The translations under genes and the position numbers were made by a program. From Thiotrichales bacterium HSG1 (GTDB lineage Bacteria; Pseudomonadota; Gammaproteobacteria; Beggiatoales; Beggiatoaceae): DNA of 16,980 bases. The number at the start of each line of letters is the position of its first letter. The stretch's first letter is position 1. The notes below the pieces were generated by a model. It was not told where the DNA came from, did not search any database, and was given only the letters and a program-made list of their open reading frames with translations. The DNA is taken from assembly GCA_030378125.1 (NCBI GenBank), contig JAUCGN010000015.1:1-16980 (forward strand), read 5' to 3'. This document shows positions 1,155 to 15,094 of this stretch, piece by piece.

Positions 1155-1173
1155 ATGCCATCTTCAACCATAA
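1087..1173 (+). CDS. Possible 28-residue leader ORF or gene remnant
   Basis: ATG at 1087 opens a 28-codon frame (begins MTTRTISNLSPEL, ends TAA 1171-1173) that overlaps the first six codons of the kinase gene in another frame. A GGAA at 1075-1078 lies at usable distance upstream, whereas the kinase ATG has no evident Shine-Dalgarno, so translational coupling is conceivable. It could equally be the leftover start of a lost neighbouring gene. No family recognised; weak call. Confidence 0.25.
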   Translation: MTTRTISNLSPELTIPKEYLKQICHLQP

Positions 1174-4100
1174 CACAAACCTTATTTGGCAGTCTATTAG
1201 ATAGTCCGGCTGCTGTGGAAATAACGGCTCATGTTTTAGAGAAAGCGATTCCAATTATTCGGGATCATTTCACGCTTTCTGCTAATGAAATAACAAGAGC
1301 CTATCAAGATAGTTGTCGTTATAGCTTTGTAGCGATTAGTATTGGTCTTGACGCACCTGATTCTCTTATCAAAAAAGTTTGTCATACTAAAATAACTCGT
1401 GAATTTGCCCAACAAATCGAAACCGATTACCTACAACCTTTCAGAGAACAAACTGGAATTAAAAACTTCGGTTTTGACAAACACTTAAAAAAATGGGCCA
1501 AACAAACCGATAAATTATTTGCTCTCAAAGAGATAACCGAAGCAGATTTAGCTGCTCTTATTGATGGTAGAAAAACTACTAATATTAGTGAGTTAATCTT
1601 ATCTCAAATGGAGAAAATTGAACCAGTTGATGATACATTGGCTAAATTTCTCCGTTTTAATAATTTATTAGGTGATAGCGTCTTATTTTTCTTTCGGGAA
1701 CAGTTTCGTAAAGATGCACGAATTCAAGCAACCCAAACTGCTTTACAACAAGAACGTTTGTGTATTGATGTGCAGAATATTCAAGCAACTTTAGCTGATT
1801 TGCAAAGTACGCAAGAAAAACATCCTTTTTTGGCCGAACAAATATCTAAACAAGTGCAGTATTTACAACAATGGCAAGTTCAGCAGAAACAGTTGCTCAA
1901 GTTTCAAAAAAGGTTTGCTGGTCAGTTGGATGAGGTGTTGGATTGGGCAAAAGATGTTTATATTAGTTTAGATGAAATTAAGGTTGTAGTAGATAAAACT
2001 CATGATTTAGCTGAGGAAATTAATCAAAAGTTAGATGCAGTTTTGACTGCTCAACAGCAGGATAATTCGGCTCAAATCAATCATGCTGATGGTACGGTGC
2101 AATATGCAGCACAGAATCAGCAATTGTTGCAGGATTTGTTAGCTAAATTACAGAGTTTATCGCCGCAGAATCTATTGTATGGTCAGGTGTCAAATAAGGC
2201 TGGACGGGCTTTGTCTTCAAGTGGTTCGAGTTCCGCTTTGGATGATGCAGAGCGTTTATTTGAGCAACTAACTCAACAGAAAATACCTCAAGATGATAAG
2301 GCGTTGGCGTATTTTAATTTGTTTCAAGTACGGTGGCGGAAAGCGTTTACTGCTATTGGTATGGATGTTAAGGAACAGTTATATGCTCAAGCTTTAGGTT
2401 CTTTTCAGCAGGCAATTGAATTGGATCGGCGGTATGCTTTGCATGATATGAGTGAGGGCAAGGGTTATTATCCGATTAAGAAGATGTTGGGTGCTGGTGG
2501 GATGGGTTGTGCGTTTTTGTGTGAGAATCATAATTTTAAGATGCATGGGCATAAGTTGGTGGTGGTTAAGTGTTTTTGGGAGGATATAAGCGGTAGTTTG
2601 GAGCAGTTGTTTCAAGAGCCAAAGACGATGCATAGTATTGCTGGTGCTTATGTGCCGGAGATTTTGGATTATGGTTATGCGGATAATGTGCGTCAGACTA
2701 AGCCTTATTTTGTTACTGAGTATTTTGCGGATGCGGTGGATGGTGAGGTGTGGTTGGAACGGGAGGGTTGTTTGGATTTGGAGACTGGTTTGCAGGTGGC
2801 GGTGCAGATAGCTGAGGCTTTGCAACAGGCTCATGCGAAGGGTATTTGTCATTTGGATTTGAAGCCAGCTAATTTGTTGTTGTGGAGGGTGGATGGTTCA
2901 GTTGTTGTGAAGGTGATTGATTTTGGTTTGGCACGGGTGACGGCATCTCAAGGGGTTGCGAGTGGTTCTACGGTATTTGGGCAGGCTATGTTTGGGACGT
3001 TGGATTATGCTCCGCCTGAGCAACGTGGTCATGGTTTTCGTTATGGTCAGCCAAGTGCTAAGAGTGATGTGTTTGCGTTTGGTATGACTATGTATCGTTT
3101 GTGGACTGGTAAGCATCCGCATCCATTTCGGGAAAGGGATTTACCGGATGTTGTGAGGAATTTATTTACTAATTGTGTCGAAAATAATCAGGAAGAACGA
3201 CCTGAATCGAAATATTTAGTTAAATCTTTAAAAGATATTTTTGATAAACTAATTGTAACTAAAGCTTTGTCTAATTCGACACAATTACATTCATCTAAAA
3301 CAGACGATGATGCTTGGAAAAATGCTTGTCAACAAAATACAATTGAGTCTTATCAGAAATATTTAGAAGATAATGGTATTTCTAAAATATACACTGAAAC
3401 CGCTCAAAGTAGATTACAGACTTTAAAAACTGAAGTTGATAAACAAGCATGGAATAAAGCATGTAAAAAAAATACGATAGAATCTTATCAAATTTATTTA
3501 AATGGTAATACACTAAAAAAATATGTTCATGATGCTCAAAAACAACTGGAAAAAATTAAAAAATGTTTAGAGGATGAAGAAGCTTGGAAATGGAGTTGTA
3601 AACAAGATAACAAGGCTGCTTATCAGGTTTACTTGAATGGTAATACAATAAAAAGACATGCCAATGAAGCTAAAAAATGTCTTAAATTTTATAACAAACT
3701 TTCTCCTAAAAATCCGCTGGATTATTTGCGTTTATTGTGGTGGATTTTGGTTATTCCACAAAATTTACAAAATTACCAAGAAGAATTTGGTAATGAAAAA
3801 TATGTTAGTAAATGGTTAGCTAGTACCGTAATTTGGTCACCATTTTTTATGTATACTTTGACGTTGTGGTTAGAATTAGTACCACCTATGGGAAATGCTT
3901 GGTCATCAGAAGTTTATCTATCACTAACAATTATGTTTTTAGTTGGGTGGATACTAACTGGGTGGTTTGGTGATGGTTTAAAGATAATAATATTATTATT
4001 ATCGTTAGTGATACTTGCAGTAATGCCTGTACTGTTGTTTGTGATATTGTTGGTGATAATATACATCATGGCACTTTTGATAGTATATTTAATAGCACCT

Positions 4101-4325
4101 ATTGAAGTAGCATCAGGTTTAGCAACAACCTTAGCAGTCATCGGAGCAATTGTGATGACATTTGGCGTTTTTGAAGACTGGAGATACAAAGAAGCAAGAA
4201 ATATCGTAGATATAGAAAATGGTACTTACTCTTGGATAGTTCGCCTTACCTTCTTCCTCCTAATAACATCCCACCTATTCTTAATTTATTACTGCTTTTT
4301 TGGAGGTTGGCAGTGGTTTGTTTAA
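1155..4325 (+). CDS. Multidomain membrane Hanks-type Ser/Thr protein kinase
   Basis: A 1056-residue predicted protein kinase. Residues 1-310 are helical with long Gln-rich coiled-coil stretches (about 190-310). Residues 355-430 look like a TPR-type helical pair. The kinase domain spans about 438-700: glycine loop GAGGMG (446-451), ATP-anchoring Lys472 in VVVK, catalytic HLDLKPAN (H566, D568, K570, N573), DFG (589-591) and APPE (619-622). All catalytic residues are present, so it should be active. After it come three tandem repeats with a 45-residue period (starting 717, 762 and 807; pattern D-x-x-AW-x-x-(A/S)C, then Y-Q-x-YL). The last 190 residues hold about six hydrophobic membrane segments, ending GGWQWFV. 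The kinase would face the cytoplasm. Substrate unknown; a signalling or conflict-system role is inference. Base composition changes sharply inside the gene (see findings). The stop lies one base before a long hairpin repeat. Confidence 0.9.
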   Translation: MPSSTITQTLFGSLLDSPAAVEITAHVLEKAIPIIRDHFTLSANEITRAYQDSCRYSFVAISIGLDAPDSLIKKVCHTKITREFAQQIETDYLQPFREQTGIKNFGFDKHLKKWAKQTDKLFALKEITEADLAALIDGRKTTNISELILSQMEKIEPVDDTLAKFLRFNNLLGDSVLFFFREQFRKDARIQATQTALQQERLCIDVQNIQATLADLQSTQEKHPFLAEQISKQVQYLQQWQVQQKQLLKFQKRFAGQLDEVLDWAKDVYISLDEIKVVVDKTHDLAEEINQKLDAVLTAQQQDNSAQINHADGTVQYAAQNQQLLQDLLAKLQSLSPQNLLYGQVSNKAGRALSSSGSSSALDDAERLFEQLTQQKIPQDDKALAYFNLFQVRWRKAFTAIGMDVKEQLYAQALGSFQQAIELDRRYALHDMSEGKGYYPIKKMLGAGGMGCAFLCENHNFKMHGHKLVVVKCFWEDISGSLEQLFQEPKTMHSIAGAYVPEILDYGYADNVRQTKPYFVTEYFADAVDGEVWLEREGCLDLETGLQVAVQIAEALQQAHAKGICHLDLKPANLLLWRVDGSVVVKVIDFGLARVTASQGVASGSTVFGQAMFGTLDYAPPEQRGHGFRYGQPSAKSDVFAFGMTMYRLWTGKHPHPFRERDLPDVVRNLFTNCVENNQEERPESKYLVKSLKDIFDKLIVTKALSNSTQLHSSKTDDDAWKNACQQNTIESYQKYLEDNGISKIYTETAQSRLQTLKTEVDKQAWNKACKKNTIESYQIYLNGNTLKKYVHDAQKQLEKIKKCLEDEEAWKWSCKQDNKAAYQVYLNGNTIKRHANEAKKCLKFYNKLSPKNPLDYLRLLWWILVIPQNLQNYQEEFGNEKYVSKWLASTVIWSPFFMYTLTLWLELVPPMGNAWSSEVYLSLTIMFLVGWILTGWFGDGLKIIILLLSLVILAVMPVLLFVILLVIIYIMALLIVYLIAPIEVASGLATTLAVIGAIVMTFGVFEDWRYKEARNIVDIENGTYSWIVRLTFFLLITSHLFLIYYCFFGGWQWFV

Positions 4326-4326
4326 T

Positions 4327-4468
4327 TGTCAGAATCAGGATTTACCGGATTAAAGGATTTTCAGGATAAAAGCAATAAACCTTAAATAATTACCTTGATT
4401 ATGATGCTTTAATTTTTTATGTTTTAATCCAGAAAATCCTTTAATCCGGTAAATCCTGATTCTGACAA
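4327..4468. repeat. Long inverted repeat, copy 1 (42-bp arms)
   Basis: Left arm 4327-4368 begins TTGTCAGAATCAGGATTTAC; right arm 4427-4468 is its reverse complement with a single mismatch in 42 positions. The loop is about 58 bases and AT-rich. It begins one base after the kinase stop codon, so a transcript would form a very stable hairpin that may act as a terminator or 3' stabiliser. Copy 2 is at 5548-5795. The arms contain internally repetitive GGATTT/CAGGAT units. Confidence 0.9.
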
Positions 4469-4513
4469 GAAAGATTATTAATCAACTAAAATTACAATAC
4501 CTAGGAATAACTT

Positions 4514-4891
4514 ATGATAGATGACGAACTAACATATAAAATTATAGGTTGTGCAATGAAAGTTCACAACACATTAGGGCCAGGATTTCAGGAAGTAATT
4601 TACCAACGTTGCCTCGCAATCGAACTAAATAAATCAGGATTATCATTTACCAGAGAACAAGACCATAAAATTTACTATGAAGGCACTGAAGTAGGTACGC
4701 GCAGAGCAGACTTTGTAGTTGAAAACGAGGTGATTATAGAAATAAAAGCACTAACAAACTTAGAAGATGTACATATTGCCCAAGCTAAAAATTATGTAAT
4801 AGCCTACGATTTTCCAAGAGGATTACTGATTAATTTTGGTGCAAAAAGCTTACAAAATAAACGATTATTTAATCCAAAATATCAAGATTGA
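4514..4891 (+). CDS. GxxExxY protein (PD-(D/E)XK nuclease-like)
   Basis: A 125-residue protein, usual length for the GxxExxY family. The name-giving motif is G24-F-Q-E27-V-I-Y30. A nuclease-like core follows: D66 in RADFVV, then E76-I-K78, the D...E-x-K arrangement of PD-(D/E)XK enzymes, and the family's C-terminal GLLINFGAKSLQNKR block. The biochemical role of the family is not established; the fold suggests nucleic-acid cleavage. It stands alone between the copy 1 inverted repeat and the secreted nuclease gene, whose start is 23 bases beyond this stop codon, so the two may be cotranscribed. Both lie between two copies of the same inverted repeat. The ATG at 4514 has only weak AGGAAT upstream. 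Confidence 0.9.
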   Translation: MIDDELTYKIIGCAMKVHNTLGPGFQEVIYQRCLAIELNKSGLSFTREQDHKIYYEGTEVGTRRADFVVENEVIIEIKALTNLEDVHIAQAKNYVIAYDFPRGLLINFGAKSLQNKRLFNPKYQD

Positions 4892-4914
4892 AGAACTTAC
4901 AGGATAAAGTTACT

Positions 4915-5511
4915 ATGAAAAATTACTTAAGTATTTTAATGTTTTGCATGTTTACAACTGTATTGGCTCAAGATTTTTCAGATTGCAAAGCTACATATTC
5001 ATTAGATGGTAAACTCCATATACCATGTGTAAATGTTCCAGAACTAGGAGACAATTATCAATTTGAAGTGGATATGGAACAATTATCCATAACTGAAGAA
5101 CCTCCACAATTTATAGTCAATAACATAACAAGTATTGAAACAGAAAAGAACTATATGTTAGTTGATGAATTAGTTAGTGTTTATGATGGAGATACCTTTA
5201 AAATCAATATAACAGGATGGCCACCAATCCTGTCAGAAATTTCAATTAGACCACGTGGTGTTGATACACCAGAAATAAATGGTGATTGTTCTTTTGAAAA
5301 AAATTTGGCTCAACAAGCAAAACAATTTACTTCCAAACAATTGCATAATGCTAAAAATATAGAATTACATAATCTTGAACGTGGTAAATATTTCCGAATT
5401 GTCGCAGACGTTCTTGTGGATGGAAAAAATTTAGCAGAACTGATAATTGTAAATAATTATGGCCGATTCTATGATGGTAATGAAAAACGTGGTTCATGGT
5501 GTGAAGATTAA
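4915..5511 (+). CDS. Secreted staphylococcal-nuclease-like (TNase) protein
   Basis: Start chosen at ATG 4915: an AGGA at 4901-4904 is well spaced and the result has a clean signal peptide (MKNYLSILMFCMFTTVLA, then QD), while the upstream TTG at 4888 would bury it. The 198-residue product is therefore probably periplasmic or secreted. The TNase-like domain occupies about 85-190: Y90-D91-G-D93-T (calcium site), R112, D117-T-P-E120 (matching R35, D40 and E43 of S. aureus nuclease) and R161 in KYFR (matching R87). All catalytic positions seem present. Residues 20-80 are an unrecognised Cys-containing N-terminal region (C24, C38). Role: degradation or scavenging of extracellular nucleic acid is inferred from the family. 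The last tens of bases before copy 2 of the repeat echo the kinase gene's end (see findings). Confidence 0.85.
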   Translation: MKNYLSILMFCMFTTVLAQDFSDCKATYSLDGKLHIPCVNVPELGDNYQFEVDMEQLSITEEPPQFIVNNITSIETEKNYMLVDELVSVYDGDTFKINITGWPPILSEISIRPRGVDTPEINGDCSFEKNLAQQAKQFTSKQLHNAKNIELHNLERGKYFRIVADVLVDGKNLAELIIVNNYGRFYDGNEKRGSWCED

Positions 5512-5547
5512 ATTTTTACTTTTAAAGGCTGGCAGTGATTTGTTTAA

Positions 5548-5795
5548 TTGTCAGAATCAGAATGGTTAGTACAGCGAATTCACGAAATAATCGAATTAAA
5601 GACGGTTATGTTGTATTCGTTTATTTCGTCAATTCGTTGTACTACTTTGTTCAGAATTAGGATTTACAAGATTAGGGGATTTTCAGGATAAAAGCAATAA
5701 ACCTTAAAAACAATGATTACCTTGATTATAACGCTTTAATTTTTTAGGTTTTAATCCAGAAAATCCTTAAATCCTGAAAATCCTGATTCTGACAA
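5548..5795. repeat. Long inverted repeat, copy 2, interrupted
   Basis: Second copy of the 4327-4468 inverted repeat. It starts with TTGTCAGAATCAG (5548-5560) and ends with the complementary TGATTCTGACAA at 5784-5795; the loop is nearly the same as in copy 1 (aaaagcaataaacctta, then ccttgattat). The left arm is interrupted by an unrelated 90-base hairpin element at 5561-5650, flanked by near-identical 10-mers. The arms have drifted more than in copy 1. Confidence 0.88.
5561..5650. mobile_element. 90-bp MITE-like hairpin inserted in repeat copy 2
   Basis: Inverted arms 5568-5590 (AGTACAGCGAATTCACGAAA start) and 5621-5643 match at 21 of 23 positions around a 30-base loop. The element separates TCAGAATCAG (5551-5560) from TCAGAATTAG (5651-5660), which looks like a 10-bp target duplication with one mismatch; in copy 1 this site occurs once. 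It has no coding capacity. A non-autonomous transposable element is the simplest reading; the transposase that would move it is not identified. Confidence 0.7.
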
Positions 5796-5804
5796 TTAAA
5801 AGGT

Positions 5805-6429
5805 TTAATCATATTCAAAACGTCCTGTACAAAAAATATTCCATACAAAGAATCCAAATAACCGAGGAATAACAATGATAGCTATGCTAATATCTCGTTC
5901 CCACATGCCATGTGGTAACGCCATAACACCACGCCGGCGGTGCGTATCAAATGGTATTAATCTCAATATGTCAATAAGCTCACCCACATGGCATGTGGAA
6001 CGAGATAAATTTGCTGATTTATCAATTCTGTAATTAGTGAGATTACCTGTAATATTTTCATGAAAAAGTTTATACTTAGCTGATAATTGGATTCCTTCCT
6101 TTAATAAATTAAGTAATTTGATTGGATTTTTCTCATCCTCCAATTTTGCAATATCAGGTATTTCATTCTTCAAATAGTCAAGCAATTTGTCAGGTTTTTT
6201 TCCAACATGCCTCAGGTATTTCCATTTCTTCTTTTAAATCATTCAATAAATTAGCTAATTCTGCCATGTATTTATTTAGATAAGTCAATGGATAAGATAA
6301 ATTTTTATACCTTTTTTCCTCATCTTCTCACTGTTTTTCTTGCATATTTGTTATTGCAGTTCCAACAGCTTGCCTTCGATCAACTTTATCAGCTAGTTCG
6401 CCTAAAGTTTGTGAATTGCAATCAGTCAT
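5805..6429 (-). pseudogene. Broken hypothetical gene, minus strand
   Basis: Reading from ATG 6429 on the minus strand: MTDCNSQTLGELADKVDRRQ, then a TGA at 6330-6328 inside a charged stretch (EKQ-stop-EDEEKRYKN, probably once CGA). The frame continues (NLLNDLKEEMEIPEACWKK) to a 7-A run at 6192-6198, where it must slip to continue as PDKLLDYLKNEIPDIAK. The downstream frame runs to the TAA at 5807-5805, passing through the GC-rich palindromic insert at 5892-6006, and ends with a hydrophobic tail (IAIIVIPRLFGFF). One stop, one frameshift and one insertion together indicate a dead gene. No family recognised; the intact protein would have been helical and charged. Confidence 0.6.
5892..6006. repeat. 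GC-rich nested palindromic repeat insert
   Basis: Outer arms ATCTCGTTCCCACATGCCAT (from 5892) and the complementary CCACATGGCATGTGGAACGA (from 5984) pair almost perfectly. Each arm also contains its own palindrome, CCACATG-C-CATGTGG. A third small GC-rich hairpin (caccacgccggcggtg) lies near 5928-5943. The GC content stands out against the AT-rich surroundings, and the repeat sits inside a pseudogene frame, so it looks like a dispersed hairpin element inserted there. Confidence 0.75.
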
Positions 6430-6562
6430 TATTCCCTACCTTAAAGTTCAAACTGGAATTTTAAAACTCTAATTATATGATACCATGAGTTTAATTGACT
6501 AATCAACTTTTTTAATTTAAAAAACCTGATAGCTCTGAATATGCTTAAAGAGACTTCATAAA

Positions 6563-8231
6563 ATGTTAATAGAAATCCTGATTTTAACAACTTTATCGCT
6601 AATAATTATTGCAATATATTACTGGAATTTATACCAACATCCAATTATACGTCTTTTGATGACAGAACCATCACGCTTACTATCAGAAATCCCTTTAGAA
6701 AAGCTTGCTAAAACTAAATTACTATTACAACGTACTAACTATCTTGATAAAGTATTAGTAGAAAATGATATCGACTGTTTAGATATAGCTATTAAATTTA
6801 TCAATACATCAGATGAAGTACGCTATGAAATAATATCTAACAAATTGAATTGTAAAACAGAACCAAGCATTAACTCAGAAGTTTTTAAATTAAATTTATG
6901 CTCAACTTTTCCACTAGGTCTTGTCGGTTGTTTATTATATTTTCCTGCTAAAAATTTAACTGTAACTAGCATTATTAGTAAACTAAAACAAGAGTTTATA
7001 TTTTCTAATGTAATAATCATAACGTTAAAACCAAATCAACAATCAAAACTACGTTCTTATGGTAAGGATTTATCTACTAGATGGATAGTCCCAAGTAATC
7101 AGGAATTAGCAACTTTACTATTACATCCTGACCCAATTTGTATATTCACTGAATTATTAGCTAATCAACTTGCTAGAAAGCTTATTTCTCCATATCAAAC
7201 TGAAGGTGGAATTATTAAAGAAGTAGTTTTTTTTTGGACGCGAAGAATTGTTAGCTCGCATTTTAAACCGTGATTTGGCAAATTATTTAGTTATTGGTGG
7301 ACGGCAACTAGGAAAATCCAGTTTTTTGAAAAAAATAGAACGATATTATGAAAATAACACGAAAGTGCAATGTTATTATCTTACTTTATTTGGAAACAAT
7401 CTGTTAGATATATTGAAAAAAGAATTGGGGTTAGCAGAAAAAGTTTCTCAATCTACAGTTTTAGAAAAATTAGGCAATGTAGAATTTGGAAAAAGTCGTT
7501 TATTACTGATTGATGAAGCTGATCAATTTATTCGTGATGAAATGGCTAATAATTTCCCTTTATTAAGTTTTTTTCGTGGTTTAAGTGAATTGGGTAACTG
7601 TCATTTTATATTTGTTGGATTTTGGGATTTATATGATGCTGCTATTAATTATCAATCTCCAATAAGAAATTTTGGCCAATCAATACAAATAGGTAAATTA
7701 GAAGCAGATGCTTGTAAAAAATTAGCTACTGAACCAATGAAAATACTAGATATTTACTATCAATCTGAAGATTTAGTTGAACAAATTCTAATTGCAACCG
7801 GTCAACGAGCAAACTTGATTGCAATAACATGTAACGAAATGTTAGGAAAATTAAAAAATGATCAGAATGTATTAAAGCAAGAAAATGTAACTGATGGTCT
7901 TCAGTGTGAAACTATGGAAATAGCCTTATCTGGTTGGACAAAGCTAACCGATGATGATGAAGCAAGTCGTTTAGATCGAATCATCATTTATGTCACGGTT
8001 AAAAAAGGTAAATTTAATAAAAAAAGTTTAATAAAATTTTTCAATAAACATAATTATACCTGCTGTGTCCCTGAATTAGAAAAATCTTTAAAACGTCTTG
8101 AATTAGCTTATATTATCCAACGTGATAATAAGGGAATTTATACTTATTGCGTACCTCTATTTAGGAAACAACTATTAGAGGAAGATTTGATAACGTTGTT
8201 AAAACAGGAGATGGGTAACCAAGTAAGGTAA
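6563..8231 (+). pseudogene. Membrane-anchored AAA/STAND-type ATPase, split at a T9 tract
   Basis: Two reading frames form one protein of about 555 residues. Part 1 (6563-7273) starts at ATG 6563 after an AAAGAG ribosome site, has an N-terminal membrane segment (residues 3-22) and a soluble domain of unknown type ending SPYQTEGGIIKEVVFF. Part 2 has no proper start of its own (only TTG at 7248) and continues FGREELLARILNRDLANYLV. The break is the T9 run at 7227-7235; eight Ts would give VVFFGREELL in one frame. Numbering part 2 from 7248, Walker A is GGRQLGKSS (17-25) and Walker B is LLLIDE (85-90); a helical and winged-helix-like C-terminus follows (about 245-320). Fold places it with AAA_16/STAND-type signalling ATPases. 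Could be true mutation, transcriptional slippage or a sequencing error. Confidence 0.8.
7227..7235 (+). other. T9 homopolymer at the ATPase frame junction
   Basis: Nine consecutive T residues precede ggacgcgaa. Frame 2 enters and frame 3 leaves with intact protein similarity, so the run is one T too long (or two too short) for a continuous gene. Runs of this length are known sites for polymerase slippage and phase variation. Confidence 0.8.
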
Positions 8232-8425
8232 CTGCCATTAAGTTAATGGATTAAAAACAAATTTTACATTTCAAATATATCAGCTTGGTTGTGTACAGAA
8301 CATTTTTTTTGATGCACAATAATAAGGATTTAATTGTAATTGATAATAATTATTTATCCTTTTCTCATATCGAATTCAGGTTAATAGTTTAAAACATGGT
8401 ACAATCATAACAACAATTTTTACCA
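8232..8425. promoter_or_regulatory. Intergenic region with AT-rich dyad before rhodanese gene
   Basis: An imperfect dyad, AAGGAT (8326-8331) to ATCCTT (8356-8361), encloses gataataattattta. This loosely resembles a Fur-box style operator, but in such AT-rich DNA the resemblance is weak. A TACAAT at 8400-8405 could be a -10 element for the following gene. Nothing else recognised. Confidence 0.25.
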
Positions 8426-8437
8426 ATGGTTAGCATA

Positions 8438-8983
8438 ATGAAAACGCTATTGATTCTCTCATTATTAATTTTTTCAATACCCACTGTTGCTAAACAGTAT
8501 TTACCAAAGAACAAACAAACAGTGTTGGGACTTTATGTTACTGCAAAAGAAGCTTTCGCAAAAAGGCATATTATTCCAAATAAAGTAAAAATATTAGATG
8601 TTAGAACTCAGGGTGAATATATATTTGTTGGTCATGCTTCAATGGCAATAAATATCCCATTGGAATTTTTAAATAGGGGAATTGATTTGAAAAAAATGAA
8701 TCCAATTATGTCTTTAAATTATAACTTTGTAGATGAGGTTAAAAAGAGGTTTAATAAAACTGATGTAATTATGATCATATGTCGTTCTGGTGTAAGAAGT
8801 GCCATTTCAGTTAATAAACTAGCACAAGCTGGTTTTAAAAATGTTTACAATATAACTGATGGATTTGAAGGTGATAAATCAAATGTTATGGATGACTTTA
8901 GCAATGGAAAAAGGATTGTTAATGGATGGAAAAATTCTAATCTTCCTTGGACCTACCAACTTGATCCTGAATTAGTATATTAA
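8438..8983 (+). CDS. Secreted rhodanese-domain protein
   Basis: Start taken at ATG 8438 (MKTLLILSLLIFSIPTVA, then KQ), giving a typical signal peptide; an in-frame ATG at 8426 would add four residues. The 181-residue product has one rhodanese domain: ILDVRTQGEY (the CH2A-like entry), VGHASMAINIP, and the active-site loop C-R-S-G-V-R-S with the catalytic Cys at residue 115, then the ITDGFEG closing motif. Periplasmic sulfurtransferases of this kind fit a sulfur-oxidising lifestyle; the actual sulfur donor and acceptor cannot be inferred. It precedes lolC by 26 bases in the same direction, possibly cotranscribed. Confidence 0.88.
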   Translation: MKTLLILSLLIFSIPTVAKQYLPKNKQTVLGLYVTAKEAFAKRHIIPNKVKILDVRTQGEYIFVGHASMAINIPLEFLNRGIDLKKMNPIMSLNYNFVDEVKKRFNKTDVIMIICRSGVRSAISVNKLAQAGFKNVYNITDGFEGDKSNVMDDFSNGKRIVNGWKNSNLPWTYQLDPELVY

Positions 8984-9009
8984 TTCCTAAAAATTATAGA
9001 ACTTAAAAT

Positions 9010-10260
9010 ATGTTTAAACCCCTACCCCTATTTATTGGATTACGTTATACCAGAGCTAAACGCCGTAACCATTTTATTTCTTTTATTTCACTTACTTCCA
9101 TGTTGGGTATTACATTGGGAGTAGTAGCCCTGATAACTGTATTGTCAGTAATGAACGGTTTTGAAAAAGAATTGCGGCATCGCATGTTAGGCATGTCAGC
9201 CCACGTTGTGATAAATACCCTAAATGACCATTGGGATGATTGGCAAAAAATGGCTGGGGAATTAGCCGATAAACCACATGTAGTTGGAGTAGCCCCATTT
9301 ATTCAAGGTCAGGCTATGGTTACTCACAACAAAAATGTTGAAGGTACTTTTTTGCAAGGTATTTCTCCTAAATATGAACCACAAGTATCTAAAGTACAAG
9401 ATAAAATGATGGTTGGTAGCTTAAACAATTTACAAGCCGGCAAGTTTAACTTAATCTTAGGTAATGAATTGGCTCGTACTCTCGGAGTTGGAATTGGAGA
9501 CAAGATAACTCTAGTTGTGCCACAAGCATCTGTCACCTTAGTTGGCTTATTACCACGCATGAAGCGTTTTACTATAGGTGGTATTTTTAATATTGGAATG
9601 CACGAATTTGATAGTGGACTTATTTCGATTCATCTTGAAGATGCCGCAAAACTTTTACGCATGCCTCCTGATAGTATCACTGGCCTCAATTTAAAGCTGG
9701 ACGATATGTTCATTGCTAAACAGTTTAGTCGTGAATTACAAAATCAATTACCATTTGGTTATTACAGCTATGATTGGACTTATCGACATAAGAACTTTTT
9801 TGAAGCCATAAAGATGGAAAAAACTGTAATGTTTGTTATTTTAACCTTAATTGTGGCGGTAGCAGCTTTTAATATTGTTTCTACATTAGTAATGGTAGTA
9901 ACTGATAAACAAGCAGATATTGCAATTTTACGCACTTTGGGAGCTACTCCTAAAACCATAATGATGATTTTTATGGTACAAGGAATTTTAATTGGATTGT
10001 TTGGCACTATTTTAGGAGTTGGTGGAGGAATTAGTTTAGCTTTAAATATTGAGACAGTGGTTCCGGCAATTGAACAAATGTTTAATGTCCAATTTTTATC
10101 TTCGGATGTTTATTATATCAGTGATTTGCCTTCTGATTTACGTTGGATGGATGTTTATAAAATAGCTGGTTTATCATTATTAATCAGTTTATTAGCAACT
10201 ATTTATCCAGCTTGGCAAGCTTCACGCACCCAACCAGCTGAGGCTTTGCGTTATGAATGA
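9010..10260 (+). CDS. lolC: Lipoprotein-releasing ABC transporter permease (LolC/LolE family)
   Basis: A 416-residue inner-membrane permease of the LolCDE complex that hands mature lipoproteins to LolA. Four membrane segments lie at about 22-48, 271-297, 326-348 and 384-405. A periplasmic domain between the first two contains the usual GISP and ILGNELA motifs; the C-terminus ends [17 protein letters not shown] as is typical. Length equals the family norm (about 400-415). The ATPase gene overlaps its last 8 bases. No second permease gene (lolE) follows, so the complex may use one permease as a homodimer (LolF-like) or lolE may lie elsewhere; lolC versus lolE/lolF assignment is by position. Confidence 0.93.
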
Positions 10261-10927
10261 TATAGTTTTGGATTGTAAAAATGTCAGTAAAAGTTTCACC
10301 GATGCAGACCTTGAGATTGATGTGTTACAACAGATAAATTTAACCATCAAAAAAGGGGAACGGGTAGCTATTGTTGGCAGTTCTGGAGCTGGTAAAAGTA
10401 CTTTGTTACATCTATTGGGTGGTTTAGATACAGCAACTACTGGAGACATTTGGATAGCTGGTAAACGCATAGGTGATTTAAATCAGACAAAACTTGGGTC
10501 ATGGCGTAATTTACACTTGGGTTTTGTTTACCAATTTCATCATTTACTGGCAGAATTTACAGCTTTAGAAAATGTTTGTATGCCACTATTAATAAAAGGT
10601 TTATCAACAAGTGAAGCTCAAGATAAAGCTGCCACTATTTTAACTCAAATAGGTTTGGGGAAACGTTTAAAACATAAGCCGGGTGAATTATCAGGTGGTG
10701 AACGACAACGGGCTGCTGTAGCACGGGCTTTAGTTACTGAACCAAGCTGTGTGTTAGCTGATGAACCAACTGGCAATTTAGACAAGCACACTGCCGAGCA
10801 GGTTTATGAGCGTATTTTAGAATTAAACGATGTGATTGGCACTAGTTTGGTATTAGTAACTCATGCTCCAGATTTAGCTAAACGTATGGATCGAACTTTG
10901 ACTTTAATTGATGGAAAACTTTGTTAG
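10253..10927 (+). CDS. lolD: Lipoprotein-releasing ABC transporter ATPase LolD
   Basis: The 224-residue ATPase powering lipoprotein extraction by LolCDE. Walker [10 protein letters not shown] at 42-50, Q-loop Q94 in [10 protein letters not shown] signature LSGGERQR (146-153), Walker B VLADEP with D170 and E171, and switch His204 in [14 protein letters not shown] after the Q-loop is characteristic of LolD. The ATG overlaps the lolC stop by 8 bases, implying translational coupling. Length is close to E. coli LolD (233). Confidence 0.95.
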
Positions 10928-11065: not shown

Positions 11066-11132
11066 TAGGACTTACGCATTGACAAGAATATTATAATATG
11101 GATCATCCAAAAAAACTATAGAAAAGAATCCA

Positions 11133-12210
11133 ATGAGAGAAATAAGTCGTCCATCAACAGCGAAATGTACCTTATCCATGTATATATCCTATATATTAAG
11201 TGAACCAAAATATATAAATTGCAGTAGGTTAGGAGAATTGATGAACATATCACATGACAGTGTGAACCGTTTTTTAAATAGAGAAAACTTAACACCAGAA
11301 GATTTATTTTTGGAAGCAAAATCTCAATTAAATTTGGAAGGTGGTATGTTGAGTGTGGACGACACAGTAATCTAGGCTAACAGTTTTTGGAAAAAACTTT
11401 AACCTAGATTGGATAAACCCTATAGTTATCATATGGATTTAGTTGACCATTTCTGGTCAGGAAAGCATCACTGTAGTGTAAAAGGAATTAATTTAATAAC
11501 GTTGTATTACACTGATGTTAAAGATAATCACCTGCCAATTAACTATAGAATCTATGATAAATCAGAATGTAAGACATGATTACTTTCAAGATATGTTGAT
11601 TGAAGTATTAAACTGGGGTGTTAAACCAAACTTTGTAAGTGGAGACAGTTGGTATAGTTGCGTTCCCAACCTTAAACTGATAAAAAACCATCAATTAGGT
11701 TTTCTATTCGCACTTAAAAGTAACCGTTCTGTTTCAATTGAAAAAAATAAGTATTTATAGATTCAAAAATTGGATATTCCAGAATATGGTTTGGAAGTTT
11801 GGTTACATGATTTTGGGTATGTCAAAGTATTTCGTACGATGTTAAAGGACCAGCAACGACATTATGCAGTGTACTTACCCGATGATAAACAGCTTGAAAA
11901 ATTTGATAGAAGTATGTTTATTAAACTCCACGACCAACATTGGCAAATTGAGCAATATCATCGTGTTATCAAGCAAGTTTGCCATATTGAACATTTTCAG
12001 GTTCGCTCACAAACAGCTATACGTAATCACATTTTTGCATCAATTTGTGGCTATGTACGTTTGCAATACTTGCGTATAACTGATTTTATTGACAATTGTT
12101 ATAATTTACAAAGAAACTTATTTAATGAAGTTATCTCTATATTCATTCAAAATTTTATTCCTAGCATTAGACATCTTGATCCTCAAGTTCACAGGAAAAT
12201 CCCTCTATAA
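11133..12210 (+). pseudogene. IS transposase (DDE, IS701/IS4-like), multiply broken
   Basis: The fragments align to one transposase of about 350 residues. ATG 11133 opens SRPSTAKCTLSMYISYILSE and reaches the first catalytic Asp in LSVDDTVI. A 42-base palindrome at 11369-11410 then introduces in-frame TAG and TAA stops, after which LDKPYSYHMDLVDHFWSGKH resumes in the same frame. A frameshift near 11567 (KT then HDYFQDM) moves to frame 1: second Asp in VSGDSWYS. A TAG at 11758-11760 replaces a sense codon (likely CAG). The C-terminal part (11770-12210) keeps the third catalytic residue, Glu in HWQIEQYHR, and KQVCHIEHFQVR. Family name is by recall of this motif set; the DDE assignment is firm. 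Not functional. Confidence 0.82.
11369..11410. repeat. 42-bp palindromic insertion inside the transposase gene
   Basis: AATCTAGG at 11369-11376 is complementary to CCTAGATT at 11403-11410, and the inner bases (TAACAGTTTTT against AAAAACTTTAA) also pair with one bulge. Removing about 39 bases restores the conserved transposase sequence DDTV-LDKPYS. The insert keeps the frame but brings two stop codons. Confidence 0.75.
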
Positions 12211-12225
12211 TTTATTTATATGATT

Positions 12226-12681
12226 TTATTGATGAAAATATCTTCTTGGATTTGTCAATGCGTAAGTCCTAATTTCATTAGCATCAATTATTAATTGTAA
12301 ATTGATTTTGCCTTCAAAAATTTTTAATTCTAATGGAGTCGATATAATTATAGCAATAAAAATTGCCAATACTAATCTAGGAGTGGCTAATTTAAGCTCA
12401 TCCCAAACATTATCTTGTTTATTCATACTGGAAACAATAAATCTATCTAAATTAAAAATGAATAATCCCCAAATCATTCCCAAAAATATTATATAAAATA
12501 ATGAAATATAATCATCTTTATAGAAAATGGTGGAAAGTGCATATCCACCAGATAACATTGCAAATAATGCAGTAAAAAATACAGTTCCACCAATACTTTC
12601 ATATTTGGCAATTTCTGGAATAGCACATTTTTCTAGTATAGTTTTATCAGCACCAGAACAAAAAATCAAAAAATTAAACAT
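12226..12681 (-). pseudogene. DUF4407-like membrane protein, 3' end cut by IS
   Basis: The protein starts at ATG 12681, overlapping the caspase stop by 8 bases. It shows LIFCSGAD, GGTVFFTALFAMLSGGYAL (membrane segment, about 30-53), a second segment (59-78) ending in the hallmark FNLDRFIVSSM, and PRLVLAIFIAIIISTPLELK (102-118), all typical of DUF4407 proteins. Genuine sequence stops at residue 137 (NEI); the last 14 residues are read from the IS terminal repeat. Family members are commonly longer, with a coiled-coil tail. Fusing across the IS would continue NSNKRIEND before a TAA at 11037-11035. It is the terminal gene of the caspase operon; a membrane-anchoring or effector role is inferred only. 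Confidence 0.75.
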
Positions 12682-13645
12682 TTTTTATAATTAGTCGTTT
12701 TTGTAAGTCATTAATTTCTTCTTTTATTTGTTCTGCATCATCATTTGTTGCAATAATTATCTTTTCTAAGTCAGACTTTTTGTCCATTTGGAATCCTAAT
12801 TCTTTTTGTTCTTTCAATATGGAAAGTTTATTTTCAACTAGTTTAATATGTTGTTCTTTTAAAGTAATTAATTGTTTTATATCAGATTTATTATCTATAA
12901 TTTCTGGTTGTTTATTGATAATAGGTTTTGCGTTATTTTTACATACCCCCAATATATCCGGTTGCCCATGAGAACTCAATTGTGGAACTGGTAAATTTTT
13001 AGCTTTCAACTGTTTAATTAACTGATTAGTAATATCTTGAAAGGTTAAAAATTCACCAACATTATCAATACCTTTTCTAAAAATTTCTAACAACTCGTGA
13101 GTAAATGCTGTACAATCCTTATTTTCTGGAGATGTATCTTTAGCCGGTTTATTAGAAGATGCAGCAACAATAAAAAACACATTCTTTTTGCCTTTACTAT
13201 CAACTTTTTCTTTTAATCTAGCACTAAAACAACAATCAATAATAAAAATAATATTTTTAGCTCTAGTTTCTTGGATAACTAAATCAACCAATTTGCTTGA
13301 TTCTATTGCTCTTGTACATTGTTTTTTTAAAACTGTTGTTCTTTTAGTAGCTAAATAAAAACTATTACTTTTAGGAATACCGTGTCCAGCATAATAAACA
13401 ATAATTGTATCTGAAGCATCAGAAAATATATCAATAGTTTCCTCAATGATTGTATCAAAATCATCTTTATCTAATATTGGATGAATATTATCCGCATCAA
13501 TTCCAACAAATTCGTTTAGAGATTTATGTAATTCTATAAGATTATTCTTAACATTGGGTAAATCTGGTAAATTATCATTTGTTGCATCAAATTTACTAGC
13601 ACCAATCAAAATAACCTGAGTATTTTTTGGATCAATTAATTCCAT
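12674..13645 (-). CDS. Caspase-like cysteine protease (peptidase C14) with coiled-coil tail
   Basis: A 323-residue protein. The C14/caspase fold occupies about 8-225: VILIGASKFD, catalytic His88 in YYAGHG, and catalytic Cys139 in IDCCFSA, arranged like metacaspases (D-x-C-x-S). AASSNKPAKDTSP and CTAFTHELLEIFRKG follow as in other bacterial caspases. Residues about 255-323 form a Lys/Glu-rich coiled coil. It would cleave protein targets after activation. The start (ATG 13645) is 3 bases after the preceding EACC1-like gene's stop, and the downstream DUF4407-like gene overlaps its end, so translation is probably coupled. The context suggests a conflict system in which the protease is the effector; that is inference from family context. 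Confidence 0.92.
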   Translation of the reverse strand: MELIDPKNTQVILIGASKFDATNDNLPDLPNVKNNLIELHKSLNEFVGIDADNIHPILDKDDFDTIIEETIDIFSDASDTIIVYYAGHGIPKSNSFYLATKRTTVLKKQCTRAIESSKLVDLVIQETRAKNIIFIIDCCFSARLKEKVDSKGKKNVFFIVAASSNKPAKDTSPENKDCTAFTHELLEIFRKGIDNVGEFLTFQDITNQLIKQLKAKNLPVPQLSSHGQPDILGVCKNNAKPIINKQPEIIDNKSDIKQLITLKEQHIKLVENKLSILKEQKELGFQMDKKSDLEKIIIATNDDAEQIKEEINDLQKRLIIKNV

Positions 13646-13648
13646 TAG

Positions 13649-14005
13649 TTAATCTCTACAAAATTTTTCTTTCATTTCTTTAATCATTTTTTCCAACATA
13701 ACTTGCATTTTCGGATCACTAGCCATTAATTTTTCAGAAATGGCCTGTAATTTTGGGCAAATCATAACGTTATTATATCCATACCAAGTTTGTAGATATT
13801 CAATAAAAGACTTAAAATCATCAAATGTTTGCACACAAGTGAAAATAGTATCTAATAATTCATAGACACCCATATCACCTTCATCTGGTGGTAACTTCTT
13901 TCTTTTAACCTCAATACCAGATCGCTCCAACCAATCAATCAAATCCAATAAAGTCTCTTCATTGGCATCTTCACCTTTTAAACGCAATTCTAACTCAATA
14001 GTCAT
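13649..14005 (-). CDS. EACC1-like small component B
   Basis: A 118-residue protein with a strong AAGGAG site before ATG 14005. Residues 1-46 (ELELRLKGEDANEETLLDL, then DWLER, PPDEGDMG) closely match protein A of this operon (14735-15094) and fit the pattern of effector-associated constant component 1 proteins, which accompany caspases, proteases and STAND proteins. After GDMG the sequence diverges: in place of the hydrophobic segment of A it has YELLDTIFTCVQTFDDFKSF, then a Met/Lys-rich amphipathic helix. It could be an adaptor linking a sensor to the caspase encoded 3 bases downstream. Its ATG overlaps the stop of the caspase stub (ATGA). Family assignment is by pattern recall. Confidence 0.7.
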   Translation of the reverse strand: MTIELELRLKGEDANEETLLDLIDWLERSGIEVKRKKLPPDEGDMGVYELLDTIFTCVQTFDDFKSFIEYLQTWYGYNNVMICPKLQAISEKLMASDPKMQVMLEKMIKEMKEKFCRD

Positions 14006-14109
14006 GACAAACTCCTTAAAGTTATAAATGTTTCACTATCTTTCCCAAAATCAAATATACTAGCCCCAATCAAAATAGCTCTTGTATCTTCTGGTTTAAT
14101 TTGTATCAT
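14002..14109 (-). pseudogene. Caspase N-terminal stub (35 codons)
   Basis: Starting at ATG 14109, three bases after the nuclease stop, a short frame reads MIQIKPEDTRAILIGASIFD and ends with TGA at 14004-14002, overlapping the next ATG as ATGA. It parallels the intact caspase N-terminus MELIDPKNTQVILIGASKFD. No His or Cys catalytic parts remain. It looks like what is left after an internal deletion joined a second caspase gene's start to the ribosome-binding region of EACC1-like gene B. Confidence 0.75.
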
Positions 14110-14112
14110 AAT

Positions 14113-14721
14113 TTAATGCTCAAGATTCTGTTCACATTCCGAAAAAAATAAATCCAAAATTCCCAACAATTCTTCCACATGTTGAACTCCAGCAGAAATA
14201 GGATGCCGAATAAACAAGTTTTTTTCCAATTTACCAAATTGCCAAATATCACCAGTTGTTACAATAGATAAAATAGGAATATCAACAGAATCATTCAATT
14301 TTTGACACACAACCGACTGTAACAAAGCTTGCTTCCAACCCTCATCAAAATTCTCATTCTTTGCTTCTACTGTTAATAACAAAGGTTTATAAACTTTCTT
14401 ATAACCGGTAGGAGTTTTAGCAGTTACCAAATAATCAGGAATAACAACCACATCATCAGTTTTAATTTGTACATGACTAAATAAATTCAATTGAGAATGT
14501 TTTCTCCAAATCTCTTTCAAAAATGGCACAACAATAAACTCCGCAGCAAAAGCTTCCTTATCATCTTCGCCCCGATTTTTAAGAGAAAAATCCAACTCAT
14601 CTTTAAACCAATCCATCACACTAACCAGTTTAACTTCATCAAAATTAATAAACTCGGCTATCTCATAATTAAGATGATAATGCTCCAAAATAGTCAGAAT
14701 ATTATCAAATTTATCAGTCAT
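14113..14721 (-). CDS. PD-(D/E)XK restriction-endonuclease-like protein
   Basis: A 202-residue protein. Its core reads IPDYLVTAK (D96), LLLTVEAKNENF (E119-x-K121), then GWKQALLQ with Q131, the order D, E-x-K, Q seen in restriction-endonuclease-like folds such as type I R-subunit N-domains. Residues 55-75 form the usual leading helix with E61. An AGGAAA site precedes ATG 14721, 13 bases after EACC1-like gene A. It probably cuts DNA, but no specificity domain is present. Its position between a constant component and a caspase stub makes it a candidate effector; alternatively it is a stand-alone gene inserted in the operon. Confidence 0.75.
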   Translation of the reverse strand: MTDKFDNILTILEHYHLNYEIAEFINFDEVKLVSVMDWFKDELDFSLKNRGEDDKEAFAAEFIVVPFLKEIWRKHSQLNLFSHVQIKTDDVVVIPDYLVTAKTPTGYKKVYKPLLLTVEAKNENFDEGWKQALLQSVVCQKLNDSVDIPILSIVTTGDIWQFGKLEKNLFIRHPISAGVQHVEELLGILDLFFSECEQNLEH

Positions 14722-14734
14722 ATAACTTTCCTAA

Positions 14735-15094
14735 TTATTGATGGTTTTTCATTTTATCTAAAATAGCTTGAATTTTACTATTAAGTTCAACCATTTCTTT
14801 ATCTGAATCAGTTATTTTTGGAGTTATCGTAACTTTTTTATCTTTCTGCCATTGGATAACAGCCGCCATCACCTGAACAACCGCAATACCAGTTGAAATC
14901 ATAGTCATTATCGTATTTGGATCAGTCCAAAATCCCATATCACCTCTAGCTGGTGGCAACTCCTTTCTTTTAACTTCTTCCAATCCATCAATATTTGTCC
15001 GCTCCAACCAATCCATCAAGTCCAATAAAGCATCTTCATTGACATCATCACCTTCCAACCGCAATTCTAACTTTATACCTTCTTCTATACTCAT
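14735..15094 (-). CDS. EACC1-like small component A, first gene of the operon
   Basis: A 119-residue protein with an AAGAGG ribosome site 6 bases before ATG 15094. The pattern is characteristic: an N-terminal strand/helix unit (IKLELRLEGDDVNEDALLDL, then DWLER), PPARGDMG at 47-54, a hydrophobic helix at about 60-82 (TIMTMISTGIAVVQVMAAVI), then QKDKKVTITPKI. This matches effector-associated constant component 1 proteins closely, better than copy B. These small proteins are thought to be a shared component of caspase/STAND conflict systems; their biochemical role is unknown. It heads the minus-strand operon, with the nuclease gene 13 bases downstream. Confidence 0.75.
   Translation of the reverse strand: MSIEEGIKLELRLEGDDVNEDALLDLMDWLERTNIDGLEEVKRKELPPARGDMGFWTDPNTIMTMISTGIAVVQVMAAVIQWQKDKKVTITPKITDSDKEMVELNSKIQAILDKMKNHQ

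What the first reader, a model, noticed from the sequence alone, without database searches (positions are those of the whole stretch)
12226..15094. Tightly coupled EACC1-like/nuclease/caspase/DUF4407 operon, a candidate conflict system
Six minus-strand ORFs are separated by only 13, 3, -4, 3 and -8 bases. Their order is EACC1-like A, PD-(D/E)XK protein, caspase stub, EACC1-like B, intact caspase with coiled coil, DUF4407-like membrane protein. Small constant components adjoining caspase effectors are a known theme of predicted NTP-dependent conflict systems. A nuclease and a DUF4407 membrane partner in the same operon is, to my knowledge, not a described set. No STAND/sensor gene is inside the operon, so the trigger may lie elsewhere (the split ATPase at 6563-8231 is one candidate).
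Basis: partly seen in the sequence, partly recalled or inferred. Interest (0 to 1): 0.8.

Follow-up and report, generated by a model that had tools for sequence, protein, structure and literature searches.

The report
Tandem EACC1 caspase and nuclease operon
A bacterium of the Beggiatoa family carries two back-to-back copies of a predicted self-destruct or defence module, one with an intact caspase-like protease and one in which a probable DNA-cutting enzyme seems to stand in the protease's place, in an operon damaged by a jumping gene.

Summary
The six-ORF minus-strand operon is real and its spacings are exact. The EACC1+caspase pair is known (Kaur 2020 "System 4"; NCBIfam NF047832), so the core is not new. 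The operon is two tandem cassettes. A: EACC1-A (Pfam match), PD-(D/E)XK protein, 35-codon caspase remnant. B: EACC1-B, intact caspase with coiled-coil-like tail, DUF4407. (1) DUF4407 is broken by a 1,206-bp IS with perfect 20-nt ends. Its other part lies on own-genome contig C36, with a matching GAAAT flank, followed by an FGE (C-type-lectin) gene. The window's join to lolCD at 11066 lacks that repeat and is probably an assembly join. (2) EACC1-B belongs to an EACC1 branch without the hydrophobic helix said to be conserved (13 of 18 homologues, itself included). (3) The closest nuclease relatives lie in predicted conflict loci in 4 of 4 places. The nuclease has dN/dS 0.025 between two genomes in both of which the downstream caspase is broken, which suggests that it replaced the caspase as EACC1's partner. 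EACC1+caspase+DUF4407 was found nowhere else in what was searched. Verdict: new variant of a known kind; function is inferred only.

The parts
14735..15094 (-). EACC1-A, 119 aa, with hydrophobic helix IMTMISTGIAVVQVMAAVI
   Evidence: PF19953 38.8 bits; Kyte-Doolittle 19-residue maximum 2.09
14113..14721 (-). Standalone PD-(D/E)XK protein (NUC), 202 aa
   Evidence: PADLOC PD_DExK 137.9 bits; PD and ExK columns nearly invariant in 50 aligned relatives; 98.5% identical to G004:C326, dN/dS 0.025
14002..14109 (-). Caspase-A remnant: first ~25 codons of an EACC1-linked caspase, then unrelated codons to a stop overlapping the EACC1-B start
   Evidence: Sequence; DNA homology to caspase starts in L014, L015, L016, L017, L018 ends at 14038-14051
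13649..14005 (-). EACC1-B, 118 aa, EACC1 branch without the hydrophobic helix
   Evidence: 43% identity to A; 13 of 18 homologues, itself included, lack the helix by hydropathy
12674..13645 (-). Intact caspase (residues ~1-245) with charged coiled-coil-like tail, 323 aa
   Evidence: PF00656 48.8 bits; NF047832 136.7 bits, cut-off 140; 83% identical over 74% of its length to P0122 (caspase-iSTAND)
12272..12681 (-). 5' part of a DUF4407 membrane-protein gene, interrupted by an IS
   Evidence: PF14362 144.7 bits, profile 2-119 of 297; remainder on own contig G000:C36
11066..12271 (+). IS element (DDE transposase, reading frame broken into several ORFs), 20-nt perfect terminal inverted repeats, many mostly partial copies in the genome
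   Evidence: PF01609 30.7 bits for the ORF at 11770-12210

Best explanation
The region is two tandem cassettes of the EACC1 conflict-system kind in a Beggiatoaceae genome. Shown from sequence: cassette B has an EACC1 (helix-less branch) directly 5' of an intact EACC1-type caspase, followed by DUF4407 and, beyond the IS, on contig C36, an FGE/C-type-lectin gene. Cassette A has a helix-bearing EACC1 directly 5' of a PD-(D/E)XK protein and a dead caspase start. Inferred: in cassette B the small EACC1 keeps the caspase inactive until a signal, read by the lectin-fold FGE protein and/or the DUF4407 membrane protein, releases it to cleave its targets and kill or arrest the infected cell. In cassette A the nuclease took over the effector position as the caspase decayed, so EACC1-A now partners a nuclease. 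The IS has broken DUF4407, so the membrane branch of B is probably dead in this genome.
For: EACC1 and caspase profile matches. In the family, 11 of 15 full-length EACC1 ORFs have a caspase as the next gene 3'. The variable part differs from locus to locus, as in the known system: FGE fusion, iSTAND, bDLD3, NACHT-HEAT. EACC1-B and its caspase have a paired relative in G004:C195 (EACC1 67%, caspase part 82%). NUC follows EACC1 in both G000 and G004:C326, with the caspase broken at different points. NUC dN/dS is 0.025 at dS 0.33, a dS like that of EACC1-A (0.44; dN/dS 0.19), so the genes look like orthologues under selection rather than a recent transfer. The four closest NUCs form a clade (support 1.0) and lie in predicted conflict loci. 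DUF4407 continues on C36: same frame, GAAAT flank, FGE next, as in G022.
Against: No function has been shown for an EACC1 system in the papers I saw. The NUC family is dispersed and multi-copy (28 of 57 relatives) and only 3 of 55 NUC loci adjoin EACC1/caspase within about 1.5 kb. Pairwise dN/dS averages over time and cannot date selection relative to the loss of the caspase. The DUF4407 + EACC1 + caspase set is unique to this genome in what I searched. The link to C36 rests on IS ends, a 5-bp repeat and frame, not on reads; of six other IS-like places with both ends, only one shows a 5-bp flank repeat. 'Helix-less' rests on hydropathy alone; the structure model of EACC1-B was poor. EACC1-A may act on caspase-B or other caspases in trans rather than on NUC.
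Confidence: 0.6

Rival explanations
1. A decaying array of ordinary EACC1-caspase modules. The nuclease is an unrelated, abundant standalone PD-(D/E)XK gene that happened to land in cassette A; DUF4407-FGE is an unrelated downstream pair. Nothing but caspase-B is functional.
For: NUC relatives are dispersed, up to 51 matches in one genome. The caspase is broken or lost in 4 of the 5 loci with this EACC1-A type. DUF4407 is IS-broken. The genome gives 54 matches to the IS.
Against: Pairwise dN/dS of NUC and EACC1-A is low (0.025 and 0.19). The NUC clade lies in predicted conflict loci in 4 of 4 places in two genera. Four of the six packed ORFs remain open and full-length.
Confidence: 0.3
2. A caspase-activated pro-nuclease system: caspase-B cleaves and switches on NUC, as caspase CanA with CanB activates nuclease CanC in canu loci (Tuck 2025, abstract and sections 8 and 9 read).
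For: Nuclease and caspase lie in one operon, with precedent in canu loci. A second PD-(D/E)XK-like gene lies near the related caspase in G004:C195 (PADLOC 28.1 bits).
Against: The canu nuclease is of the metallo-beta-lactamase type; NUC is PD-(D/E)XK. In G004:C326 NUC has no intact caspase beside it. In G041:C144 no caspase was recognised on the 12 kb examined around NUC. I did not test NUC for a gating insertion.
Confidence: 0.15
3. EACC1 is an antidote-like inhibitor of caspases: orphan EACC1s persist after their caspase is lost, to neutralise caspases elsewhere in the genome.
For: Two EACC1s without any intact caspase (G001:C122, G004:C173) are conserved, pairwise dN/dS 0.22. EACC1 precedes the caspase in all 11 intact pairs. 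Intact EACC1-caspase pairs exist elsewhere in both of those genomes.
Against: Only a few short sequences; EACC1-A and EACC1-B are far apart (dN 0.50), so cross-inhibition is not obvious; the published prediction makes EACC1 a membrane sensor that activates the caspase (Kaur 2020, section 33 read).
Confidence: 0.2

Closest known systems
EACC1-caspase two-gene system ('System 4', Kaur et al. 2020, PMC7159879; Pfam PF19953, NCBIfam NF047832)
   Same: EACC1 gene 5' of a gene with N-terminal caspase and variable C-terminus; the paper associates the system with multicellular bacteria
   Different: Two cassettes in tandem; EACC1-B lacks the hydrophobic helix; a PD-(D/E)XK gene stands in the 3' position of cassette A; separate DUF4407 and FGE genes follow the caspase
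canu caspase-nuclease systems (Tuck et al. 2025, PMC12799240)
   Same: A caspase and a nuclease encoded in one locus
   Different: canu uses an MBL-type pro-nuclease downstream of a caspase with Ig-like fold, and EACC1 is not mentioned in the sections read; here the nuclease is PD-(D/E)XK, upstream, and kept where the caspase is broken
vWA-MoxR / iSTAND ternary systems (Kaur et al. 2020)
   Same: Related loci G040:C6 and G004:C195 hold caspase-iSTAND proteins, and they and G041:C144 hold AAA_5-type ATPases that I read as MoxR-like (Pfam bpMoxR only 13-15 bits, below cut-off 27)
   Different: No such ATPase, vWA or STAND gene among the operon ORFs scanned or the three C36 proteins scanned
FGE/C-type-lectin antigen-sensor loci with diversity-generating retroelements (PNAS 2024, PMC10907252, passages read)
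   Same: FGE domain beside predicted conflict genes
   Different: No template-repeat copy of the FGE 3' end found in G000, G001 or G004; two short weak matches in G022; reverse transcriptase genes were not searched for

Membership tests
EACC1-caspase two-gene system (Kaur 2020) | 5' gene encodes EACC1 | tested here: met
   EACC1-A 38.8 bits, cut-off 23.6; EACC1-B below cut-off (12.9) but homologous
EACC1-caspase two-gene system (Kaur 2020) | 3' gene has an N-terminal caspase domain | tested here: met
   Cassette B only: PF00656 48.8 bits; NF047832 136.7 bits, just under cut-off 140, as are 3 of 5 EACC1-linked caspases of relatives (134.8-139.1; the other two 146.8 and 197.3). Cassette A: caspase reduced to a stub
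EACC1-caspase two-gene system (Kaur 2020) | EACC1 has one conserved TM helix with small residues | tested here: not met
   By hydropathy met for EACC1-A (2.09), not met for EACC1-B (0.72) and 12 close relatives (0.49-1.01)
EACC1-caspase two-gene system (Kaur 2020) | Variable domain C-terminal to the caspase | tested here: met
   Coiled-coil-like tail here; iSTAND, FGE, bDLD3, NACHT-HEAT in relatives
canu (Tuck 2025) | MBL-type nuclease with gating insertions | tested here: not met
   NUC matches PD_DExK at 137.9 bits, PD and ExK conserved; gating insertions not looked for
canu (Tuck 2025) | Nuclease activated by caspase cleavage | not testable with these tools
   Needs biochemistry
DUF4407 family (PF14362) | Full-length domain of 297 positions in one gene | tested here: not met
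   Interrupted: window holds 2-119, C36 holds 109-294
VMAP or iSTAND ternary systems | MoxR plus vWA partners in the operon | tested here: not met
   Not among the five operon ORFs scanned against Pfam (stub not scanned) nor the three C36 proteins scanned

The most novel reading that the evidence does not exclude
EACC1 is not tied to caspases or to the membrane: one EACC1 has swapped its caspase for a PD-(D/E)XK nuclease (an EACC1-nuclease unit kept by selection while the caspase decays), and a separate soluble EACC1 branch pairs with caspases whose membrane function is supplied by a neighbouring DUF4407 protein and whose sensor is an FGE/lectin-fold protein.
Probability: 0.25. Interest if true: 0.68.

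Novelty: new variant of a known kind. Interest (0 to 1): 0.5.

Why it matters
EACC1 systems were predicted from sequence to be membrane-anchored caspase switches. I saw no experiment on one in the papers found. A soluble EACC1 branch, and an EACC1 with a nuclease in the caspase's place, would separate what EACC1 does from membrane sensing and from proteolysis, and give two small gene pairs that can be tested directly. The damaged cassettes show such systems being lost piece by piece, which hints at which parts are kept without the protease.

Tried and rejected
DUF4407 as a general caspase partner: not borne out. No DUF4407 relative confirmed in viral contigs.

DUF4407 fold: a model of the G022 protein P0001 (mean pLDDT 80, pTM 0.48) shows three helices, a long helical hairpin and a further helix, read as membrane-spanning by inference; no PDB match at E of 0.001 or less; a profile search of PDB sequences gave nothing significant (best E 0.011, apolipoprotein and other helical proteins). 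NUC and the caspase have no significant PDB relative by sequence either. The EACC1-B model was too poor to use (pLDDT 62.8), so no fold search was made with it.

Recent transfer of NUC between G000 and G004, suggested by 98.5% identity: set aside, because dS 0.33 is like that of its neighbour EACC1-A.

Diversity-generating retroelement acting on the FGE gene: no template copy found in G000, G001 or G004; G022 gave two short matches (63 and 30 bases, one in its own FGE gene). G000 is only 63% complete, and reverse transcriptases were not searched for.

Split ATPase as trigger: not pursued; it lies across the doubtful IS-lolD join.

EACC1 in the class sample outside the family: 4 of the other 368 genomes, two of them over cut-off, neighbours not examined.
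Full report
What is there. The window is one whole contig (G000:C58) of a 63%-complete draft genome. A same-genus genome, G004, encodes on its 85,844-base contig C195 the proteins P0122 and P0150, which NCBI records name as Candidatus Halobeggiatoa sp. HSG11, so the window is from a Beggiatoaceae relative. The six minus-strand ORFs and the spacings 13, 3, -4, 3, -8 are exact.

Identity of the genes. EACC1-A passes the Pfam cut-off (38.8 against 23.6 bits); the caspase matches PF00656 (48.8 bits); DUF4407 matches with 144.7 bits but only over positions 2-119 of 297; EACC1-B scores 12.9 bits, below cut-off; the nuclease has no Pfam match but matches PADLOC PD_DExK with 137.9 bits. NCBIfam has a family 'caspase, EACC1-associated type' (NF047832); the window caspase scores 136.7 bits against a cut-off of 140, and of five EACC1-linked caspases of relatives two pass and three fall just short. 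The 35-codon stub matches the first ~25 codons of EACC1-linked caspases; DNA homology with G004:C326 runs unbroken from 15107 to 14038 at 91% through EACC1-A, NUC and the caspase start and stops there. So the operon is cassette A (EACC1-A, NUC, dead caspase start) fused to cassette B (EACC1-B, caspase, DUF4407).

The insertion. A 20-nt perfect inverted repeat bounds a 1,206-bp IS at 11066-12271. The own genome gives 54 matches to it, most of them partial. Own contig C36 (5,364 bp) begins with 127 bases of the IS left end and then continues DUF4407 (profile 109-294). Both sides of the IS carry GAAAT in coding direction (window 12276-12272; C36 128-132), as a 5-bp target duplication would; the flank on the lolD side is TGTTA. 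Of the four contigs that begin with the IS left end (C36, C282, C424, C455), only C36 has GAAAT. The support from other copies is thin: of six other IS-like places with both ends recognised, one (L096) shows a 5-bp flank repeat (AATTA) and five do not. The simplest reading is that the operon runs from the window into C36, and that the join to lolCD at 11066 comes from assembly through a repeat; a real IS-mediated rearrangement cannot be excluded.

Beyond the insertion. On C36 DUF4407 is followed by an FGE-type protein (PF03781, 210 bits) with a charged C-terminal tail, then a convergent flotillin-like gene (PF15975, 77.5 bits). In G022 (Candidatus Parabeggiatoa sp. nov. 2) an intact 394-aa DUF4407 is also followed by FGE, but no caspase was recognised on the stretch around it (L098). 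In G001:C150 an EACC1-linked caspase is fused to FGE. In G018 an SPFH protein, a DUF4407 protein and a caspase of another type (NF047832 31.6 bits) lie in a row. FGE domains are a C-type-lectin subtype proposed as sensors in predicted conflict systems (PMC10907252, passages read).

How common. EACC1 by Pfam: 6 of 143 relatives and 5 of 369 in a class sample, of which 3 over cut-off, own genome included in both. With a profile that includes the new branch: 18 places in 10 of 42 family genomes. Of the 15 with a full-length ORF called, 11 have a caspase as the next gene 3', two (window A, G004:C326) have NUC, and two have none that the HMM sees; the ORF caller missed one place (L264, caspase present) and two are fragments (L259, L265). 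DUF4407 over cut-off: 5 of 42 family genomes; the other four of those have no EACC1 match. Outside, 1 of 80 DUF4407 loci has a caspase, on the other strand. So the threefold combination is known to me only here.

EACC1-B. A search of 5.8 billion proteins gave 18 homologues, the window protein included. Thirteen (P0145-P0157, at least 57% identical) have a 19-residue hydropathy maximum of 0.49-1.01; five more distant ones have 1.63-2.29. The branch has its own conserved stretch, roughly DTIIT-LQT-DD-K-LIEYL-TWY-YN-VMICPKLQAISEKL, most members ending near FCK; Pfam marks 1 of the 13 as EACC1 (P0151). Kaur et al. describe the TM helix as strongly conserved (section 33 read). The relative in G004:C195 (67% identical, 63%) lies directly 5' of a caspase-iSTAND protein 82% identical to the window caspase in the caspase part, so the pair has been kept.

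The nuclease. The family is dispersed: 28 of 57 relatives, up to 32 matches in one genome there, 6 in the own genome, and 51 in G041. Of 55 loci examined (the best-scoring loci of two searches, about 1.5 kb each side), 3 adjoin EACC1/caspase genes: G000, G004:C326 and G040:C6; these and G041:C144 form one clade (support 1.0; midpoint-rooted FastTree of 50 sequences). In G040 NUC is about 800 bp upstream of EACC1 rather than between EACC1 and caspase. In G041:C144 the neighbours are a protein without Pfam match that is 45% identical over 228 residues to the iSTAND-bearing part of the G040 caspase, and an AAA_5 ATPase, read by me as MoxR-like, 87% identical to that of G040. The 62-64% relatives in G011 (2 of 3 examined) are not so placed. 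PD and ExK columns are nearly invariant (D 49, E 49, K 50 of 50). Between G000 and G004 the nuclease has dN 0.008, dS 0.331, ratio 0.025; EACC1-A has 0.085, 0.441, 0.194. The caspase next to it is cut at about codon 25 in G000 and is an 88-codon ORF in G004, where an EAD9-bearing piece follows. In both genomes, then, the gene directly 3' of this EACC1 is the nuclease and the caspase is dead. I read this as effector replacement, an inference with moderate support.

EACC1 without caspase. Of five EACC1s with the helix IMTMISTGIAVVQVMAA (window A, G001:C122, G001:C150, G004:C173, G004:C326), four lack an intact caspase, yet pairwise dN/dS among them is 0.11-0.25. The numbers are small and average over the time before the loss.

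Literature. The search for EACC1 with caspase lists two papers; EACC1 from 2021 lists six, of which by title only the one already found is relevant. Both relevant papers are computational as far as I saw (PMC7159879, passages and section 33; PMC8195603, passages). DUF4407 appears in three papers, known to me from the listing only. PMC8195603 does not contain the word DUF4407 in its main text; PMC7159879 is not among the three papers that do; supplements could not be read. The canu paper (PMC12799240; outline with abstract and sections 8 and 9 read) shows that a bacterial caspase complex can activate a nuclease for defence, with an MBL-type nuclease.

Verdict. A real operon, of a known kind, in an unusual and partly broken form. 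The new points are the helix-less EACC1 branch, the EACC1-nuclease arrangement, and the DUF4407-FGE pair behind the caspase. Function is inferred throughout.

Noticed in passing
window 11066: The contig's join from the IS to lolD shows no target duplication; the left two thirds of the window (kinase, ATPase, lolCD) may not be neighbours of the operon.
   Followed up: partly
window 1155-4325: 1,056-aa Ser/Thr kinase (PF00069 99.5 bits; PADLOC PD-T4-6 125 bits) with hydrophobic C-terminal segments.
   Followed up: no
L065 (G018:C181) 5233-10769: SPFH/band-7 protein, DUF4407 and caspase in a row, co-directional, in another genus of the family; a flotillin-like gene is also next to the DUF4407-FGE end on C36.
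   Followed up: partly
L243 (G004:C195) 2620-6489: Helix-less EACC1, caspase-iSTAND, an AAA ATPase (read as MoxR-like) and a weak PD-(D/E)XK-like gene in a row: parts of different conflict systems mixed in one locus.
   Followed up: partly
L013 (G001:C122) 6117-6458 and L015 (G004:C173) 3354-3710: EACC1 genes without an intact caspase, conserved in sequence; L015 keeps a caspase start fragment.
   Followed up: partly
L018 (G040:C6) and L245 (G041:C144): Loci with related NUC and AAA ATPase genes; one has EACC1 plus caspase-iSTAND, the other a protein with an EAD9-locus-like N-terminal stretch plus an iSTAND-like part in the same place, which looks like an exchange of modules.
   Followed up: partly
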